From a virus, in IMG/VR virus record IMGVR_UViG_3300044653_000055, positions 1-23,211 of that record: a stretch of DNA of 23,211 bases, one strand, 5' to 3'. Positions 11,835-21,459 of this stretch are shown here, piece by piece; positions within the stretch are counted from its first letter, which is position 1; every line of letters starts with the position of its first letter. A program made the position numbers and the translations under genes. The notes under the pieces are model-generated. The model did no database searches and had not been told where the DNA came from. It saw nothing but the letters and a program-made list of their open reading frames with translations.

Positions 11835-12713
11835 ATGAGCCAGGTCGACAACACCCTCAAGCAGCAGATCATCAGCGAGTACATTCGTACGGCCGCAGGG
11901 CGTGCGAAGCTCGCTGCTTCGATGATCCAGCCGCTCCGTCTTCGCCGTGACTACACGGCGGTAGGCCGCAAGACCTTCCTGGTCGAGCAGCTTCCCGACG
12001 GCGCGCTGCCGATCTACGACAAGGACCCGGACGTGACAGCGTACGTGGTCGGTGAAGAAGGCGAGAACATCCTCGCCATCCAGAAGCCGCGCCGCGTGAT
12101 CTTCCCGCTGTTCGAGGTCGCCTCGAACCCGGAGATCCCGCTGACCCAGATCAAGGAGCGTCGCTTCGACCTCATCGAGCGCGCCCAGGATCTCGCCAAG
12201 GCACAGATCCAGGCTGCCGAGGACGAGCGCGTCTTCGCAGTCCTCGACTCGATCGCCGTCTCGGGCTTCGACACCTTGCCGGGTCAGACGAACCCCGACG
12301 TTGCTGTCGTGGCCCCCATCTCGCCGAGCGTCCTCGCTGATGCCTTCGCTGAGATCGAGCGCCAAGACCTCCGGGTCGCTCGCATCTACATGAACGCGAC
12401 CGACTACGCGGACATCCGCAAGTTCGGTCGGGACATCCTGGACATCGAGAGCCAGGCCGTCCTCCTCAAGACCGGCCTCCAGGCCGTGCTCTGGGGCGCT
12501 CAGATCATCATCTCGCGCCTCGTGCCCGTGGGCTTCGTCTACGTGTGTGCAGAGCCCGAGAACTTCGGCCGCTTCCCGGTCCGCACCGAGCTGACGGTGC
12601 TTTCGGCCGACGACCCGAAGGCACGTACGATCGGCTTCTCCTGTTTCGAGAACGTCGGCATCGGGGCGTTCAACCCCAGGGGCCTCACCCGCCTCGTGGT
12701 CACCCGCATCTGA
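11835..12713 (+). CDS. Major capsid protein (HK97 fold expected)
   Basis: The 292-residue product has the layout of an HK97-type major capsid protein. It has a helical N-terminal arm, then VFPLFE-type strands (RRVIFPLFEVASNPEIPL), a long spine-like helix (RRFDLIERAQDLAKAQIQAAEDE), an A-domain with MNATDYADIRKFGRDILDIE, and a C-terminal beta segment with RTELTVLSADDPKARTIGFS. I recall this last block from capsid proteins of several large phages. Codon use is strongly GC-ending, as expected for a highly expressed gene. It follows the decoration-like gene by 34 bases and is closed by the intrinsic terminator downstream. The N-terminal SEYIRTAAGRAKLAA may be a processing region for the protease, which is inference. 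Confidence 0.88.
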   Translation: MSQVDNTLKQQIISEYIRTAAGRAKLAASMIQPLRLRRDYTAVGRKTFLVEQLPDGALPIYDKDPDVTAYVVGEEGENILAIQKPRRVIFPLFEVASNPEIPLTQIKERRFDLIERAQDLAKAQIQAAEDERVFAVLDSIAVSGFDTLPGQTNPDVAVVAPISPSVLADAFAEIERQDLRVARIYMNATDYADIRKFGRDILDIESQAVLLKTGLQAVLWGAQIIISRLVPVGFVYVCAEPENFGRFPVRTELTVLSADDPKARTIGFSCFENVGIGAFNPRGLTRLVVTRI

Positions 12714-13217: not shown

Positions 13218-13898
13218 ATGTCTCGATGTCTCGGTGTAAACCGAGACATGCATCCTTCGTGGAAGGCCTCGCTTGCCACTGAGTTTCGCCAACCCTACTT
13301 CGAGAAGCTTCGGGATTTCGTTCGAGACGAGCGGCGGGCCCACACAATTTTTCCTCGGGAGGGGGAGGTTTTCGCGGCCTTTGATGGTCCTTTCGACGCC
13401 GTTAAGGTCTGCATCCTCGGTCAGGATCCCTACCACGGACCAGGGCAAGCCCATGGGCTTGCGTTTTCCGTTCGCAAGGGCATGCCCATACCCCCAAGTC
13501 TCCTGAACATCTACAAGGAATTGGGGACGGACGTGGGGTTCAAGTCACCAGGTCACGGCTGCCTTCAGGAGTGGGTGGATCGAGGGGTGCTCCTTTTGAA
13601 CACCTCGCTGACGGTCCGGGCGCACGAAGCTGGGAGTCATTCAGGGCAGGGATGGGAGCGGTTTACGGACGCGGTCATCCGGGTCCTCGCAGACCGTGAC
13701 AAGCCGGTGGTCTTCGTGCTGTGGGGGTCCCACGCTAAGAAGAAGGTAGCCTTCCTTGACCCAGTGAAGCATACGGTGGTGTCGTCCGCGCACCCATCCC
13801 CGCTCTCGGCTCACGCAGGGTTCTTCGGGAGCCGGCCTTTTTCGACGGTCAACCGAGCGTTGGGGGACGAGGCTATCGACTGGCAGCTCACCCCCTAA
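13218..13898 (+). CDS. ung: Uracil-DNA glycosylase, family 1
   Basis: The enzyme removes uracil from DNA by cutting the N-glycosidic bond. All family-1 motifs are intact: the water-activating loop GQDPYHGPGQAHGLAFSV, the PPSLLNIYKEL segment, LLLNTSLTVR with the uracil-binding Asn, LWGSHAKKK, and the leucine loop HPSPLSAHAGFFG. The length is close to the 229 residues of E. coli Ung. Two starts are possible. ATG 13218 gives ten extra residues and sits four bases after the previous stop. ATG 13248 begins MHPSWKASL, which corresponds well to the N-terminus of the family, but it is partly inside a 10-bp hairpin. Neither has a strong ribosome binding site. The stop overlaps the convergent minus-strand gene by four bases. 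A phage copy may repair deaminated cytosine in the phage DNA. Confidence 0.95.
   Translation: MSRCLGVNRDMHPSWKASLATEFRQPYFEKLRDFVRDERRAHTIFPREGEVFAAFDGPFDAVKVCILGQDPYHGPGQAHGLAFSVRKGMPIPPSLLNIYKELGTDVGFKSPGHGCLQEWVDRGVLLLNTSLTVRAHEAGSHSGQGWERFTDAVIRVLADRDKPVVFVLWGSHAKKKVAFLDPVKHTVVSSAHPSPLSAHAGFFGSRPFSTVNRALGDEAIDWQLTP
13226..13249 (+). promoter_or_regulatory. 10-bp GNRA hairpin at the start of the uracil-DNA glycosylase gene
   Basis: ATGTCTCGGT at 13226-13235 pairs perfectly with ACCGAGACAT at 13240-13249 around a GTAA loop. The right arm contains the first two bases of the alternative start codon at 13248. It would hide that start in RNA, or form inside codons 3-11 if translation begins at 13218. 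Confidence 0.5.
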
Positions 13899-14251
13899 TC
13901 TTCATCTTCCACCGCTTCGGGAAGTTGAGGGATAACAGCGTGATGGGTTCTGAACTCTGTGGGGTTGGCGAAGACTTTCTCCCGGTCGGTGGGCAGGCGA
14001 AGAATCTTCGGATCCCGGGGAGTCTTGCAGACGTTGGCGCGGTAGATAGCGATGCCCGCACACTGGACGCCGGTGAGCGTATGACACTCGACCTCGCACT
14101 CCCCATGCGCAGCCAGCACCCATTCCTCGGCGCTCATGGCACCTAGCCACCCATTAAGGGCAGCCCGTGCCCACGGACAATCCGAGCACGGTTTCTTGTG
14201 CTGGGTTGTGGCAGGGACCGCTTCCTCGGAGGAAATAAGTTGGAGTCTCAC
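13895..14251 (-). CDS. Cys-rich DUF6283-like protein (118 aa)
   Basis: The minus-strand gene starts at GTG 14251, overlapping the upstream stop as GTGA, and ends in a four-base overlap with the convergent uracil-DNA glycosylase gene. The sequence PCSDCPWARAALNGWLG, then HGECEVECHTLTG, QCAGIAIYRAN and VCK, fits small phage and actinobacterial proteins assigned in my memory to DUF6283 (CPW, CH and CAG landmarks). Six or more conserved-looking cysteines and a His suggest metal binding. The biochemical role is unknown. It is probably cotranscribed with the gene at 14248-14748. Confidence 0.75.
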   Translation of the reverse strand: MRLQLISSEEAVPATTQHKKPCSDCPWARAALNGWLGAMSAEEWVLAAHGECEVECHTLTGVQCAGIAIYRANVCKTPRDPKILRLPTDREKVFANPTEFRTHHAVIPQLPEAVEDED

Positions 14252-14748
14252 TTGTCCATTTCCGCCATGGCACGCTCTTCCTGCTCCAGCTTGTAGAGAA
14301 CGTTGAAGCCGTAGTTGAACTGTTCTTCGTCCTCCTTGTCTTGGGCGATGGTGTTCTGGCGGATGACGGGCTCCGCTTCTGCTGCGGTCGCCTTGCGGAT
14401 GCCCACGTCGTTGCCGTAGACGAAGTGGATGGTCTCGGTGTCCATCGACCAGACGAGCGCGATGGGTTTGTTATCCCGCAAGACCATGGTCACGTCGCAG
14501 GTAAGTGCGTTCCACGGAAGCTCCTCGCCCACTGCGAGTCGGATCTGACCAAGACCTGCGGGCTCTACGGGCTCCCCGAAGTCGCCAATGCGGAATAGGT
14601 TCCGAACGGATTCGACCGCTGCTTCGGGAGATGGGGCGTAGACGGCCTGGGCACCGAACTTGGGGTTCTCGTCGAGGCACCCATCGGGGACCATGACCCA
14701 GTGCTGGTTCTCGATCGTCATCGGGTGGCTGCTCGTCATCAGGTGCAT
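14248..14748 (-). CDS. Hypothetical protein (166 aa), minus-strand island
   Basis: ATG 14748 is preceded on the minus strand by AGGAGA at a spacing of about seven bases. In-frame Met residues at positions 4 and 10 are alternatives. The protein is soluble, with mixed alpha/beta composition and an acidic helical C-terminus. The AQAVYAPSPEAAVESVRNLF segment resembles the short strand-helix units seen in many small phage proteins. It overlaps the downstream DUF6283-like gene by four bases. No family is recognised. A conserved element shared with the gene at 14801-15175 lies upstream. Confidence 0.75.
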   Translation of the reverse strand: MHLMTSSHPMTIENQHWVMVPDGCLDENPKFGAQAVYAPSPEAAVESVRNLFRIGDFGEPVEPAGLGQIRLAVGEELPWNALTCDVTMVLRDNKPIALVWSMDTETIHFVYGNDVGIRKATAAEAEPVIRQNTIAQDKEDEEQFNYGFNVLYKLEQEERAMAEMDK

Positions 14749-14767
14749 GGCTGGTCTCCTGCCGCTC

Positions 14768-14795
14768 CTACAAGGTTAGGGGTACGCCGATCAAA
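14768..14795 (-). promoter_or_regulatory. Conserved upstream element, copy 1
   Basis: On the minus strand this reads TTTGATCGG, two bases, TACCC, seven bases, TGTAG. The same arrangement recurs at 15183-15209 before the other minus-strand transcription start. TTTGAT and TGTAGG are 17 bases apart, like a -35/-10 pair, though the second box is a weak match to the consensus. It may be a phage promoter or a regulator site. Confidence 0.45.
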
Positions 14796-14800
14796 ACTTA

Positions 14801-15175
14801 TCAGGGCAGTCGCTTGAACCCACAACCCTCGACCATCCACAGGACGTCGTCCTTCTGGACGATGTCACCGACGGACATCGACGTGTGTTGCAGCCCGAGA
14901 CCCCGGATGAAGCCGTTCGCTTGCCCCTGCGGGCTCCACTGCTCCCCCTGCATCATCATCCAGACCTCTTCGGGGTGATCCGTGTCGAGCGTACCGACAC
15001 AGGTGTGCGTGCCCTCGATCGTCGCGATTGTCGGAAGGGGGATGCCCTGCTTCACGAGCCATTCGGATCCGAAGATACCGTCCCGGAAGAAGGGGGGCTT
15101 CATGTACCAGACCGTGGTGGTGCCGGTGCCGTAACGGGGATCGAGGCTGCCTGCGATGTCTTTGAGCGTGCTCAT
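14801..15175 (-). CDS. YodL-like domain protein (124 aa)
   Basis: I chose ATG 15175 because AGAGGGGG stands directly upstream on the minus strand; the frame is open eleven codons further but those codons overlap the conserved upstream element. The C-terminal half has the pattern LGLQHTSMSVGDIV...LWMVEGCGFKRL, matching in style the YodL-like domain, whose ending typically reads H-(T/S)-(M/L)-S-(V)-GD(I/V)V followed by a GF. The N-terminal part VWYMKPPFFRDGIFG is a motif I associate with small phage proteins, without known activity. Function unknown. It is the first gene of the minus-strand set. Confidence 0.75.
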   Translation of the reverse strand: MSTLKDIAGSLDPRYGTGTTTVWYMKPPFFRDGIFGSEWLVKQGIPLPTIATIEGTHTCVGTLDTDHPEEVWMMMQGEQWSPQGQANGFIRGLGLQHTSMSVGDIVQKDDVLWMVEGCGFKRLP

Positions 15176-15182
15176 GCCCCCT

Positions 15183-15209
15183 CTACAGCCGCGAGGGTAA
15201 CCGATCAAA
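15183..15209 (-). promoter_or_regulatory. Conserved upstream element, copy 2
   Basis: On the minus strand it reads TTTGATCGG, one base, TACCC, seven bases, TGTAG, the same blocks in the same order as copy 1 with one base less between the first two. TTTGAT and TGTAGA are 16 bases apart. It ends seven bases before ATG 15175, so a sigma70-type reading would give an almost leaderless transcript. Confidence 0.45.
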
Positions 15210-16579: not shown

Positions 16580-16666
16580 GTGCCGGGAAATGGGGTTGCG
16601 GGGGCGAAGGCTCTCGCGACCCCTTGCTCTTTGGCCCTATTCCTCTTGTTCATTGCCTCCGGGTGA
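16580..16666 (+). CDS. 28-residue hydrophobic mini-ORF coupled to the next gene
   Basis: GTG 16580 stands a few bases after a purine-rich GAGAGAGGGA site. The peptide begins with a Gly/Ala/Lys-containing segment and ends in a hydrophobic stretch, CSLALFLLFIASG. Its TGA (16664-16666) shares its last base with the ATG at 16666 of the next gene, a TGATG junction. That next start has no ribosome binding site of its own, which fits coupled translation through this mini-ORF. It may be a leader peptide or a tiny membrane peptide. Its expression is unproven. Confidence 0.45.
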   Translation: MPGNGVAGAKALATPCSLALFLLFIASG

Positions 16667-17565
16667 TGTCGGCACCGACGAACGATGGTTGTATGCGCCG
16701 GGAGGCCTCATCGGCAACCGGGCAGAACAGGACTGCGTCCATCTCGGTCTTCCTCGTGGAAGAACTTGGGGATGCTCGGGTCCGGTGCGAGCAGCTCAAG
16801 AAGTACGTCGACGATGCGATGGATCTTGTTGAGAACTCGACTCACCGGGATCACTTTTTCGAGGTTGCCGGACACTTGCTCCATGGCATCCCCGAGGTGC
16901 TATTCAAGCTGGAGAAGGCGTTGGAGGCGGCCTCGATGGCAGCCGGACGCATCGACTACGAGGAAATCAAGGAGCGCCTCAAGCCCGAGAAGGTCGAGGA
17001 GCTGGAGAAAGCTCTCCAAGATGTCCGCATCCGCCGACTGCACCGATCCGAAGGGGATACTCAAAACGCTCCCCCTGTCAAACAGAACGAAAAGGAGACT
17101 CACACCGCCATGAACGCCAAGATCGCTGCCCAAGAACTTGTTGCAATGGCCGCGCATGTCGAGCGAACAGGCTCGGTGCCGATGGCCAACCTGGTTTCGC
17201 TCATCGCCAAGCTGGAAAAGGGCAAGCGTCAGGCTTCGGCTTCTGGTGCATCCCCCGAGAAGGTCGCTGGGTACTTCCGGGCGATGGCGGACACGCTCAT
17301 CAAGTCCTCTACGGAGACCGATCCCGCGAAGAAGCCGAGCCGTTTCGCTCTGGCGCAGTCGCTCCGTCGTGTTGTCGCAGATCAAATGCCGATGACCTCC
17401 GCCCAGATCGCCGCGCAAATCTACCAGACGGCCAACTCGCCCGAGGAAGTCAAGAAGAAGTTCAAGGAGCAGAACCCCAACATGAGTGAGGCGGACTTGG
17501 AAGCGGCGGCGACCATGTGGTCCAAGCACAAAGATGTTGTGAAGGACATGCACCAAGAGCAGTAG
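16666..17565 (+). CDS. Two-domain helical phage protein (299 aa) with possible nested start
   Basis: I chose ATG 16666 because it overlaps the stop of the 28-residue mini-ORF as TGATG; the in-frame TTG at 16624 has no support. The first domain, up to about residue 125, is charged and helical (HRDHFFEVAGHLLHGIPEVL, then a KLEKALEAA helix and KPEKVEELEKALQDVR). A hydrophilic linker leads to a second helical domain beginning MNAKIAAQELVAMAAHVE, encoded from an in-frame ATG at 17110 with AAGGAG at 17092-17097. The spacing of twelve bases equals that of the decoration-like gene. The gene could therefore also yield a separate 151-residue product. No family is recognised. Confidence 0.75.
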   Translation: MSAPTNDGCMRREASSATGQNRTASISVFLVEELGDARVRCEQLKKYVDDAMDLVENSTHRDHFFEVAGHLLHGIPEVLFKLEKALEAASMAAGRIDYEEIKERLKPEKVEELEKALQDVRIRRLHRSEGDTQNAPPVKQNEKETHTAMNAKIAAQELVAMAAHVERTGSVPMANLVSLIAKLEKGKRQASASGASPEKVAGYFRAMADTLIKSSTETDPAKKPSRFALAQSLRRVVADQMPMTSAQIAAQIYQTANSPEEVKKKFKEQNPNMSEADLEAAATMWSKHKDVVKDMHQEQ

Positions 17566-17585
17566 TAACGGTGTAGGGGTCTCGT

Positions 17586-18494
17586 GTGGTGCAGCCTAAC
17601 ACTATCTTGGGATACGTCTATCTTGTCACGAATCTCGTGAACGGAAAGAAGTACGTCGGTTGCACCAAAGTGTCTGTCGAGCACAGGTGGCGCCAGCACC
17701 GAAGCGCCGCCAGGAAGGGAAGCCTCCTGGCGATCCACGCAGCCCTACGGAAGTACGGGAAAGACAGCTTCAAGGTAGAGATTCTTGAAACAGTTAGGGG
17801 CAGGCATGACGAGCTGCTACTTGCTGAAGTACGTCAGATCGCAGCCCACAACTGTGTCTCTCCGGCGGGCTACAATCTCACGAACGGGGGGGAAGGTGTG
17901 GACTTTCTGGTTCCCGAGGTACGCACAAGGCACGCCGAGAGCGTAAAAAGTCGATCTGCGAATCCAGACTGGCAGCGGAGAACTGCTGAAGCCAATCGAA
18001 GAAAGGTCACGGACCCCGACTGGCTCGTGGCAACTACTGAGGCCAACCGAAGGAAGGCCCTAGATCCCGAGTGGCAGCAGGCCACCACGGAGGGCGCTCG
18101 TAAGCGTTCAATCGATCCTGCGTGGCAACGAAACGTCGCTCTAGGTGCTATTAAAAGGGCGGCTGACCCTGACTGGCGAAAGGCAAACCTGGAAAGTCTA
18201 CAGGAGCTTCATGCCGAGCCCGCGTTCGTTATGGCGCATGCCGAGGGGATACGAAGGCGGGCCCTGAATCCTGAATGGCTCAGGAATGTGGCTGAAGCAG
18301 CTCGACGTAGGGCGCTTGACCCTGAATGGCTTGGGAAGAGCACAGATAGCCTACGCAAGGCGCATGCTGCGCAATCCGCCAGGGCCCTAGCGATAGACGC
18401 TACGGTCAGTTCAAAAGAGAGGTCCCGTAGGGTAGGGAATCGTGAAGCTGTTCGACGCTACAGGGCCAGAAAGAAGCTTCAGGCATCATCATGA
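17586..18494 (+). CDS. GIY-YIG homing-type endonuclease with eight 17-aa repeats
   Basis: GIY-YIG enzymes cut DNA, and free-standing phage copies usually act as homing endonucleases that spread their own gene. The catalytic domain covers residues 9-104: GYVYL (9-13), YVG (23-25), the Arg-containing RWRQH (34-38), the catalytic Glu81 in AEVRQIAAHN, and YNLTNGGEG. From residue 126 to 261 come eight consecutive repeats of exactly 17 residues, each starting with (D/N/E)P-x-(W/F) and ending in a basic cluster, probably the DNA-binding arm. A basic tail follows. GTG 17586 has only a weak TAGGGG site; GTG 17589 is an alternative. The stop overlaps the next ATG by four bases. It sits among structural genes and is probably mobile. 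Confidence 0.88.
   Translation: MVQPNTILGYVYLVTNLVNGKKYVGCTKVSVEHRWRQHRSAARKGSLLAIHAALRKYGKDSFKVEILETVRGRHDELLLAEVRQIAAHNCVSPAGYNLTNGGEGVDFLVPEVRTRHAESVKSRSANPDWQRRTAEANRRKVTDPDWLVATTEANRRKALDPEWQQATTEGARKRSIDPAWQRNVALGAIKRAADPDWRKANLESLQELHAEPAFVMAHAEGIRRRALNPEWLRNVAEAARRRALDPEWLGKSTDSLRKAHAAQSARALAIDATVSSKERSRRVGNREAVRRYRARKKLQASS
17961..18368 (+). repeat. Eight tandem 51-base coding repeats in the endonuclease gene
   Basis: Eight units of 17 codons follow one another without a gap. Each begins with (Asp/Asn/Glu)-Pro-x-(Trp/Phe), has Ala/Glu in the middle and Arg/Lys near the end. The bases have diverged far more than the spacing, so the protein period, not the DNA, is kept by selection. 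Confidence 0.85.
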
Positions 18495-19432
18495 CTCGCG
18501 TCGTCTCTCTTCAACAACCGCTAGTGATCCGGCCTGCTTATGGACAGGCAGGACTTCCATCGGCAGTGAGCATTGGGGGTGTCCCCATCCAAGAGTATGC
18601 CCGCACCAAGGGCCTTGGTTCCGGTCCTGTAGCCGAGTCTGGCCTTCCAAAGGGCGATCCAGGGGGGAAGGGCATCAAACTCGACAAGGACATCCCTGGA
18701 GAGTCGACTTTCGACAAGCCCGAGGAAGATGTCCGACAGTTTGACAAGACCGAGCCGGGATCGATCTACCGGATCGACGGTCCTGACGACATGGCGAGGC
18801 CTCAGGATCAGCCGGACGGGGACGAGCGGCATCACGAGGACTTCAAGCCACGTATAGAGCCCGAAGACTCGAAGCCGACCGAGGAGATTACCAAGTACCC
18901 GTACAGGGACGGATTGCCCCACCAACATTTCGCGAGTGAACAGAATGAGTTCGTCGTTGGACTCTATCTCGCCGAGCGGGCCCACACCCTCAAGATCGTG
19001 CCTGGTAACAGAGTCCTCGTTGCGACGCGCCCTGATGAGGTCATCACGGGACTGAACCCCCAGTTTGCTCAACGGGCGAAGTCCTGCTCGGTGTCTATGA
19101 AGCGGGCGGACATCGGCAACCTCCGTTGGCTTTTCTCGGTCAACTGTGGCAATGGCCCCAAGGTCGTCAAGTTGAAGGCGTTCCGCGCAGCGAATGTGGT
19201 GCGGATCGGGAAGATGGATGTAGACCTTGCCTGCTCTTGTCCAGCGTGGCAGTGGCTTGGCCCAGAGCACCACGCCAAGGGTAATGATTACCTGGATGGG
19301 AGCCCTAGGGGAACAGCATCCACCCCTGTTATCAGGGATCCTCAGGGTATCAACCGCGTCTGCAAGCACGTCGCTGCGGTGCTTTCGTTTGTCCAGGATT
19401 GGCAAGTCAAGCCGACCCCAAAGAAGAAATGA
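18491..19432 (+). CDS. SWIM zinc-finger-like phage protein (313 aa)
   Basis: ATG 18491 overlaps the endonuclease stop as ATGA. The N-terminal half is disordered-looking and acidic, with Gly/Pro/Asp-rich sequence. From about residue 150 a folded domain appears, including LYLAERAHTLKIVPGNRVLVATRP and RWLFSVNCGNGPKVVKLKAF. It ends in a CSCPAW motif near residue 247 and VCKHVAAVL near residue 291. This is the CxC...CxH signature of SWIM zinc fingers, which bind DNA or protein, here with an insert of about 40 residues containing GPEHHAKGN and PRGTAS. I recall similar long-insert SWIM proteins in other large phages. Function unknown. If the endonuclease is a newcomer, this gene's original upstream neighbour was the gene at 16666. 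Confidence 0.8.
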   Translation: MTRVVSLQQPLVIRPAYGQAGLPSAVSIGGVPIQEYARTKGLGSGPVAESGLPKGDPGGKGIKLDKDIPGESTFDKPEEDVRQFDKTEPGSIYRIDGPDDMARPQDQPDGDERHHEDFKPRIEPEDSKPTEEITKYPYRDGLPHQHFASEQNEFVVGLYLAERAHTLKIVPGNRVLVATRPDEVITGLNPQFAQRAKSCSVSMKRADIGNLRWLFSVNCGNGPKVVKLKAFRAANVVRIGKMDVDLACSCPAWQWLGPEHHAKGNDYLDGSPRGTASTPVIRDPQGINRVCKHVAAVLSFVQDWQVKPTPKKK

Positions 19433-19439
19433 GAATCAG

Positions 19440-19898
19440 ATGCCCCTCTACACGGTCCAGTGCCAGGTCTGCGAGAAGCAGGGAACCCAGAAGCTCACCT
19501 TCGCTGAATACGATGAGGTCAAGGCTCAGAAGCGAGACGTGTCCTGCCCGCACTGCGGGGGATGGGCGAACATCGTCTTCGATCCTGGCAATGTGAACTT
19601 CGTCCTCAAGGACGGCGAGAGTGGGGGTTGGATCTCGAAGGCAGGCAGGGAGAACACGTTCCGGCGGAGGCACAACGTCGAGGTAAGCCGGCGGCAGCGG
19701 GACCATGCTCCTCGCACCACGCTCCAGCCTAACTTCCAGGGAGGGCTCACCGGAACCTGGAAGACGGCTCAGGAAGCGGCGTTCGAGACTCGTTACGACG
19801 AGGTCAAGCAGGAGCATGGCGCTCAGGTGGCTGTGCAAGCCGCAACGGAAGCCGCGCGGACATATGATCCTCTTGTGAATCGTCAGGTGACGCGATGA
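19440..19898 (+). CDS. FmdB-like zinc-ribbon phage protein (152 aa)
   Basis: I chose ATG 19440, seven bases after the previous stop, because the protein then begins MPLYTVQCQVC, the usual N-terminus of FmdB-type zinc ribbons. Cys8 and Cys11 pair with Cys36 and Cys39 of SCPHCGG. A FVLKDGESGGWISKAG segment follows, similar to the Phe and GGW strand seen after the ribbon in this family. A basic RRRHNVEVSRRQRDH stretch and a helical C-terminus complete it. The four cysteines should bind one zinc. FmdB-like ribbons were first linked to gene regulation; in phages the role is unclear. The stop overlaps the next start as ATGA. Confidence 0.75.
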   Translation: MPLYTVQCQVCEKQGTQKLTFAEYDEVKAQKRDVSCPHCGGWANIVFDPGNVNFVLKDGESGGWISKAGRENTFRRRHNVEVSRRQRDHAPRTTLQPNFQGGLTGTWKTAQEAAFETRYDEVKQEHGAQVAVQAATEAARTYDPLVNRQVTR

Positions 19899-20566: not shown

Positions 20567-20893
20567 GTGTATCTCATCAACCCGCTCTCCCTACAGATCG
20601 CCAGCACGCTCTTCATCCAGATCGGTCGGTTCAGGGCAGCGCAGGGACTTGTAGGACCAAAGGACGGAGCCAACGAGTCGTTCACGACGCCGGGTCTGGA
20701 GAAGTTCGTCCACAACCTGCCTTTTCTGGACATCTCCGTCTACTACAACGGCGTGCGCCTCGCCCTTCTCGACGACTACATGGTTGCGGAGAGCGGAGGC
20801 ACAGGAACGGGCTTCGACACGATCATCATGAACGTGCCGCCGTTCGCCAACGACCACCTTTTCGCCGACTACATCATCCAGCCGACGCCCTAG
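20567..20893 (+). CDS. Small beta-sandwich virion-type protein (108 aa), paralogue of the next gene
   Basis: GTG 20567 has GGAGGAGG at 20552-20559, about eight bases upstream. Residues from about 24 on align with the C-terminal half of the next gene. Shared blocks are KDGAN or KNGAN, F-x-T-(T/P) and the FVH segment, then a strand with YYNGVRL or WHNGRRL, ESGG-x-GTGFDT, and an ending with ADY. The NG-x-RL...ESGG-x-GTGFDT pattern is like small beta domains in phage tail and baseplate proteins. The two genes arose by duplication. This copy is the short form, with only about 23 residues before the domain. Confidence 0.75.
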   Translation: MYLINPLSLQIASTLFIQIGRFRAAQGLVGPKDGANESFTTPGLEKFVHNLPFLDISVYYNGVRLALLDDYMVAESGGTGTGFDTIIMNVPPFANDHLFADYIIQPTP

Positions 20894-20925: not shown

Positions 20926-21459
20926 GTGGCCGGGACGTACGTTCGCTACCGTCAGATTCGGGTTGCCGACAACCAAGCGGATCAGGCGACCCCTACTCAA
21001 ATTTCTGGTGCGTTGGCGAATTCCGTCACCCAGGAAGACCTCCAGTACTACTACCTGAGCCGTCTCAACCAGATCATCTTCGGCACAGCCTATCCGTCCC
21101 ACCATTGGTACGAGGACTTTCTCTCTGAGGGGATCCTCTCGCTGAAGGATCTCTCGAACCTTGCACCGACGAAGTTTCGTACGGGGGTTCCGCTCGTAGG
21201 GCTCAAAAATGGTGCCAACCGAATCTTTCAGACGACTCCCGACTACTTCGTACACGACCCGACGGGAACTGGTCGAGACATCGAGGTCTGGCACAACGGT
21301 CGGCGGCTCATCCTTACGGCAGTCCCCGATCCGAGCCAAGGGGACTTTATCGTCTCCGAAAGCGGAGGAGTGGGGACAGGCTTTGACACGGTAACCCTTT
21401 TGACATTCGCTCCAGTGGGTAAGTCCACGCTCGTGGCCGATTACGCATTGGCCTCATAG
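20926..21459 (+). CDS. Virion-type protein with same beta domain (177 aa)
   Basis: GTG 20926 is preceded by AAGGAGG at 20912-20918 with seven bases between. The first 80 residues are specific to this protein and partly helical, with QEDLQYYYLSRLNQIIFG and a YPSHHWYEDFLSEG segment. Residues of about 84-176 repeat the domain of the preceding gene: VGLKNGANRIF, VWHNGRRL, FIVSESGGVGTGFDT and LVADYA. The combination of a linker-like N-terminus and a beta domain suits a connector or tail-tip subunit, but the exact role is unknown. Confidence 0.75.
   Translation: MAGTYVRYRQIRVADNQADQATPTQISGALANSVTQEDLQYYYLSRLNQIIFGTAYPSHHWYEDFLSEGILSLKDLSNLAPTKFRTGVPLVGLKNGANRIFQTTPDYFVHDPTGTGRDIEVWHNGRRLILTAVPDPSQGDFIVSESGGVGTGFDTVTLLTFAPVGKSTLVADYALAS

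What the first reader, a model, noticed from the sequence alone, without database searches (positions are those of the whole stretch)
17586..18494. GIY-YIG endonuclease with eight exact 17-residue repeats wedged between structural genes
The catalytic domain looks intact, but the DNA-binding part is replaced by eight units of exactly 17 residues. A constant period with strongly diverged bases suggests a modular array in which each unit may contact DNA, as in other repeat-based DNA-binding proteins. The four-base overlap with the next gene and the 20-base gap before it suggest a precise insertion.
Basis: partly seen in the sequence, partly recalled or inferred. Interest (0 to 1): 0.6.

Follow-up and report, generated by a model that had tools for sequence, protein, structure and literature searches.

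The report
Phage homing endonuclease, helical NUMOD3-like repeats
This is a selfish DNA-cutting gene sitting neatly between two genes of a giant-phage relative; its tail of eight 17-residue repeats is a much-changed version of a known DNA-binding repeat, and relatives of the gene have invaded four neighbouring spots of the same gene cluster.

Summary
ORF 17586-18494 (302 aa) has a GIY-YIG domain (residues ~1-104) with its catalytic residues intact, eight units of exactly 17 residues (124-259; 0 of 20,000 shuffles reach the period-17 signal) and a basic C-terminus. It is a free-standing homing endonuclease of a jumbo-phage lineage (capsid 83% identical to a 485-kb uncultured phage, 38% to Bacillus phage G). 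Sixteen genes of this family (window included) occupy four sites in the same operon: three gene junctions and one split gene. In many relatives the window's junction is empty (gap about -3 to 17 bp), so the gene was inserted cleanly there. One copy lacks the N-terminus and one is frameshifted, as the homing cycle predicts. The array does not replace the DNA-binding part. It is probably that part: a NUMOD3 tandem (whose normal period is also 17) in which the glycine linker has become helical. Profiles align in register without gaps (0 of 100 permuted controls reach the score); Pfam misses it. The predicted model is a rod of 16-residue helices. Unit-specific residues kept between orthologues lie on one helix face (p = 0.0003, small sample, post hoc). 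DNA contact by each unit is inferred, not shown.

The parts
17586..18494 (+). Free-standing GIY-YIG homing endonuclease gene, 302 aa, GTG start
17586..17897 (+). GIY-YIG catalytic domain, residues 1-104; Y23, G25, R34, H38, E81, N97 invariant in the 15-member family alignment
   Evidence: model matches I-TevI catalytic domain, Z 12.3, 2.1 A over 91 residues
17955..18362 (+). Array of eight 17-residue units, residues 124-259, consensus A-A-D-P-E-W-R-K-x-x-A-E-A/G-x-R-K-R; diverged NUMOD3-type units predicted as 16-residue helices with a one-residue break
18363..18491 (+). Basic C-terminal helices, residues 260-302; conserved R-R-x-R-x-R-E-x-x-R-x-x-x-A-x-K motif resembling a bZIP basic region
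17566..17585 (+). 20-bp gap between the upstream stop and the endonuclease start: left edge of the insertion
16624..17565 (+). Upstream host gene (unknown function), directly adjacent to the downstream gene in many relatives
18491..19432 (+). Downstream host gene with a weak SWIM-type zinc finger; its start overlaps the endonuclease stop (ATGA)

Best explanation
This is a free-standing GIY-YIG homing endonuclease gene. The enzyme cuts genomes that lack it at or near the junction of the two flanking genes, and repair from the donor copies the gene in, between one stop codon and the next start codon, so neither host gene is harmed. The N-terminal I-TevI-like domain cuts. The 17-residue array is a diverged NUMOD3 tandem that has become a kinked helical rod. 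Together with the basic C-terminal helices it most likely lies along the target DNA and sets where the cutter acts. Shown here: gene, domains, array, empty and occupied junctions, decayed copies, purifying selection on a relative's array. Inferred: that the array contacts DNA, that the target is this junction, and that the gene is still active.
For: Catalytic domain: Pfam, PHROG homing endonucleases, I-TevI fold Z 12.3, invariant catalytic residues. Mobility: 16 related genes at four sites in one operon, with the window's junction empty (gap about -3 to 17 bp) in more than 30 locus records, including the nearest relatives L184 and L185; one copy splits the downstream gene (L236); L036 lacks the GIY motif and L048 is frameshifted; copies group partly by site. 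Array: hhalign puts it in register with NUMOD3 tandems without gaps (82%, score 21.3; 0 of 100 column-permuted controls reach it, best 11.5); the best match falls in the predicted register for 16 of 24 NUMOD3 anchors; relative L108 holds both unit types in one array, with NUMOD3 called by Pfam, and the model shows short helices plus linkers for NUMOD3 units and 16-residue helices for the others. Selection: dN/dS about 0.16 in both the catalytic domain and the array of L078/L084.
Against: Pfam calls NUMOD3 in none of 15 family members. The array's net charge is only +6 over 136 residues. No DNA complex could be modelled. No target site or activity is demonstrated. pTM is 0.37, so the overall shape of the rod is uncertain. 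The reversed-profile control scores 15.5, so part of the NUMOD3 similarity is generic amphipathic-helix composition.
Confidence: 0.8

Rival explanations
1. The gene is a homing endonuclease, but the array is a rigid spacer or a protein-protein (dimer) rod; DNA recognition lies in the basic C-terminal bZIP-like helices.
For: The C-terminus is far more basic than the array (12 against 3, versus 26 against 20). The unit-specific helix face is partly hydrophobic (W6, and A/V/L/M at 10, 13, 14). Pfam bZIP_2 matches 4 of 15 members.
Against: The array aligns in register with NUMOD3, a DNA-binding module. Residues on one face differ from unit to unit but are kept between orthologues, which a plain spacer would not need. 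The conserved C-terminal R/E pattern differs from the bZIP signature and there is no zipper.
Confidence: 0.25
2. The 17-residue array is unrelated to NUMOD3 and arose independently as a helical repeat.
For: No family member is called NUMOD3 by Pfam; the glycine of NUMOD3 is missing; part of the profile score comes from helix composition (reversed control 15.5).
Against: Same 17-residue period, gap-free register, permuted controls far lower, and arrays with both unit types in one register (L108).
Confidence: 0.2
3. The gene is domesticated: kept as a phage function (for example excluding rival phages) rather than as a mobile element.
For: It is old at this junction (39% identity between window and L091 at the same junction) and relatives are under purifying selection.
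Against: Patchy presence, several sites, decayed copies and a gene-splitting copy fit recurrent homing better. The two roles can coexist.
Confidence: 0.1

Closest known systems
I-TevI (phage T4 GIY-YIG homing endonuclease; 1ln0, 1mk0)
   Same: Catalytic fold and residues (Z 12.3, 2.1 A, 29% identity); extended C-terminal DNA-binding region that includes a minor-groove-binding helix (PMC1564403)
   Different: Free-standing, not in an intron; no zinc finger or helix-turn-helix found by Pfam; eight repeated units instead of single modules
NUMOD3 (Pfam PF07460) tandem arrays in phage GIY-YIG enzymes
   Same: 17-residue period, gap-free register, acidic or polar N-cap, E12, basic residues near the unit end
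   Different: Glycine linker lost, Trp at position 6, unit predicted as a 16-residue helix with one break; not recognised by Pfam
T4 Seg enzymes (SegA-SegG), free-standing phage homing endonucleases
   Same: GIY-YIG genes placed between conserved genes, nearly all in the direction of their neighbours (PMC2988022); SegE_GIY-YIG model matches
   Different: Array architecture; several copies of one subfamily in one operon
Tetrasphaera phage TJE1 orf35 ('putative SegB homing endonuclease')
   Same: Same unit type (ASDPAWIARNAEQATDV, AKDPVWLSKTREASRKR) and a 1-base overlap with the next gene
   Different: Fewer, less regular units; 28% identity; different C-terminus
HEG islands around phage structural genes (PMC10448857)
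   Same: Several homing endonucleases bracketing one gene cluster
   Different: Here one GIY-YIG subfamily occupies four sites in one operon; that paper deals with T5orf172 and HNH types

Membership tests
GIY-YIG nuclease superfamily | GIY...YIG motifs followed by catalytic Arg, Glu and Asn | tested here: met
   GYVYL/KYVG, R34, E81, N97 conserved in the family alignment; Pfam above cut-off; I-TevI fold
Free-standing homing endonuclease | Own ORF between host genes, with relatives lacking it at the same junction | tested here: met
   Empty junctions with gaps of about -3 to 17 bp; window insert 926 bp
Free-standing homing endonuclease | Not within a self-splicing intron | tested here: met
   No Rfam match in window, L236, L198 or L184 at gathering thresholds; both flanking ORFs are complete
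Free-standing homing endonuclease | Site-specific cleavage of the empty allele and biased inheritance | not testable with these tools
   Needs enzyme assay and phage crosses
NUMOD3 (PF07460) | Match to the Pfam NUMOD3 model | tested here: not met
   0 of 15 family members match, against 12 of 15 distant relatives. Not filed as NUMOD3; called a NUMOD3-like variant
NUMOD3 (PF07460) | Tandem units in 17-residue register with SxE...K.SEA-like pattern | tested here: met
   hhalign 82%, gap-free, 0 of 100 permuted controls; mixed array in L108
NUMOD3 (PF07460) | Conserved glycine ending each helix | tested here: not met
   Position 16 is K/R in 69% of units; model has 16-residue helices
bZIP transcription factors | Basic region followed by a leucine zipper | tested here: not met
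   Basic-region-like match in 4 of 15 members only; protein ends after the basic region, no zipper

The most novel reading that the evidence does not exclude
The array is a repeat-based DNA reader: each 17-residue helix reads a short stretch of DNA through one face, and the residues at positions 1, 6, 7, 10, 13, 14 and 17 of each unit carry its specificity. New sites would be reached by changing, adding or losing whole units, which would explain the different arrays at the different sites.
Probability: 0.12. Interest if true: 0.8.

Novelty: new variant of a known kind. Interest (0 to 1): 0.42.

Why it matters
It links two unit types in one evolutionary series, from linker-separated NUMOD3 helices to a near-continuous helical rod, inside a single family of natural site-specific nucleases. 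The family offers orthologous arrays with different unit counts at known junctions, so whether unit number and unit residues set the DNA target can be tested directly. It also shows one endonuclease subfamily at four sites of one operon in jumbo phages.

Tried and rejected
1) Insertion into an intron: no Rfam match. 2) A true bZIP protein: the window's match (22.8 bits, cut-off 22.3) is not general and there is no zipper. 3) Recent repeat expansion: unit DNA is only 16-34 of 51 identical, and units match their orthologue better than their neighbours. 4) Search of bacterial genomes with the protein: no relative confirmed. 5) An array-only profile for finding other proteins with this array failed because no stretch was conserved enough; so whether the array occurs with other nuclease domains is untested. 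6) The helical-moment test over positions 1-17 in naive order was not significant (p 0.32); it became significant only in the helix order given by the predicted model (p 0.0003; one clade alone 0.0002, two others 0.07 and 0.10 with the same direction). This was decided after the first test, so treat it as a lead. 7) Structure-library matches to the array itself are generic long helices (vault, flotillin, SFPQ; large rmsd) and were ignored. 8) RNA structure over the start codon: not unusual (z -0.8). 9) Promoter scan: nothing beyond chance. 10) Published work on this repeat variant: the six papers in the held library that mention NUMOD3 show nothing of the kind in title or abstract (not read in full); subscription journals are not covered.

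Full report
What is there. ORF 17586-18494 encodes 302 residues. Residues 1-104 are a GIY-YIG domain that models onto the I-TevI catalytic domain with Z 12.3 and 2.1 A over 91 residues. The residues invariant in the 15-member family alignment include Y23, R34, H38, E81 and N97. Residues 124-259 are eight units of exactly 17 residues; no shuffle in 20,000 reaches the period-17 score. Residues 260-302 are basic (12 K/R, 3 D/E).

Where it sits. The window is a 23,211-bp virus fragment. Its major capsid protein (11835-12713) is over 90% identical in dozens of IMG/VR contigs, some over 500 kb, 83% identical to a 485-kb uncultured phage and 38% to Bacillus phage G: a jumbo-phage lineage. The endonuclease lies between genes 16624 and 18491. 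In many relatives those genes abut, with gaps of about -3 to 17 bp and no insert, including L184 and L185, whose 18491 gene is 63-65% identical to the window's. The insert runs from just after a stop codon to the next start codon (ATGA overlap), harming neither gene.

A family on the move. Sixteen related genes, the window's included, were found at four sites of this operon: six between 15312 and 16624 (site A), eight between 16624 and 18491 (site B), one between 18491 and 19473 (site C), and one inside 18491, which it splits into two ORFs (site D, L236). The contig behind L198 carries four of them. L036 lacks the first GIY motif and L048 is broken into two frames. In the tree, copies cluster partly by site (four of the six A copies group with 91/85 support), as expected if they home to the same site and only now and then move to a new one. 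The end of gene 15312 next to site A is among its most conserved stretches; at site B conserved patches lie on both sides (KDVVK before, QPLVxRPxYG after). These are candidate targets, not shown ones.

What the repeats are. Many phage GIY-YIG enzymes carry tandem NUMOD3 units with the same 17-residue period; Pfam recognises NUMOD3 in 12 of 15 distant relatives but in none of the 15 family members. Profiles of two consecutive units from each set align without gaps and in register (hhalign 82%, score 21.3). Scrambling the column order within units never reaches this (best of 100: 11.5); reversing gives 15.5. The distant relative L108 has both types in one array: its NUMOD3-type units (the protein is called NUMOD3 by Pfam) model as helices of 11-13 residues plus a linker, its DP-type units as 16-residue helices with a one-residue break, just like the window's. 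So the window's array is best read as NUMOD3 whose glycine linker has become helix. Because Pfam membership was tested and not met, I call it NUMOD3-like, not NUMOD3.

How it may work. NUMODs are DNA-binding modules tethered to phage nucleases (PMC3943268), and I-TevI's binding region includes a minor-groove helix (PMC1564403). By analogy the rod and the basic C-terminus lie along the target and place the cutter. Supporting hints: the array of L078/L084 is under purifying selection (dN/dS about 0.16, as in the catalytic domain); in these two proteins each unit matches its orthologue (11-16 of 17) better than other units. Residues that differ between units but are kept between orthologues (positions 1, 6, 7, 10, 13, 14, 17) fall on one side of the predicted helix (p 0.0003, strongest angle 95-100 degrees per residue; three clades point the same way, one significant alone). 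That face is partly hydrophobic, so it could be a protein contact instead of a DNA contact. The test was refined after seeing a null result in naive order, so it is a lead only.

Known or new. Free-standing GIY-YIG genes between conserved phage genes are known from T4 (PMC2988022), and clusters of homing endonucleases around structural genes are known (PMC10448857). A cultured phage, TJE1, has a gene with the same unit type. What is new here, as far as the held sources show, is the helical-rod variant of the NUMOD3 array, its place in a series with ordinary NUMOD3, and the occupation of four sites of one operon by one subfamily.

Noticed in passing
window 11835-12713; loci L024-L103: The major capsid protein is over 90% identical across dozens of contigs up to 529 kb while neighbouring proteins are only about 35-80% identical: either extreme constraint or frequent exchange of the capsid gene.
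   Followed up: partly
L236:3603-5498: A family endonuclease splits the 18491-type gene into two ORFs, each with its own start; no intron found by Rfam.
   Followed up: partly
L070:16356-17857 and L071: The 18491-type gene is also split in two here, without an endonuclease but with about 180 extra residues at the end of the first half; possibly the scar of an older insertion or a natural domain boundary.
   Followed up: no
window 13218-13898: Uracil-DNA glycosylase gene just downstream of the capsid gene; present in some relatives, inverted in L070/L071, absent nearby in others.
   Followed up: partly
window 13895-15208: Three ORFs on the minus strand interrupt an otherwise plus-strand gene cluster; probably an inserted module.
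   Followed up: no
window 16592-16623: Strong 14-pair terminator-like hairpin between genes 15312 and 16624, at the junction that is site A in relatives.
   Followed up: no
window 18491-19432 and 19470-19898: Weak SWIM zinc-finger and zinc-ribbon matches in the two genes downstream; their functions are unknown although conserved across the lineage.
   Followed up: partly
window 20567-20893 and 20926-21459: Neighbouring proteins that look like tandem paralogues: the C-terminal part of the second matches the homologue of the first in L001 and L003.
   Followed up: no
L107:3001-3936: A more distant enzyme with the same tryptophan-type 17-residue units (seven scored above 13 bits), on a contig not tied to the jumbo-phage family.
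   Followed up: partly
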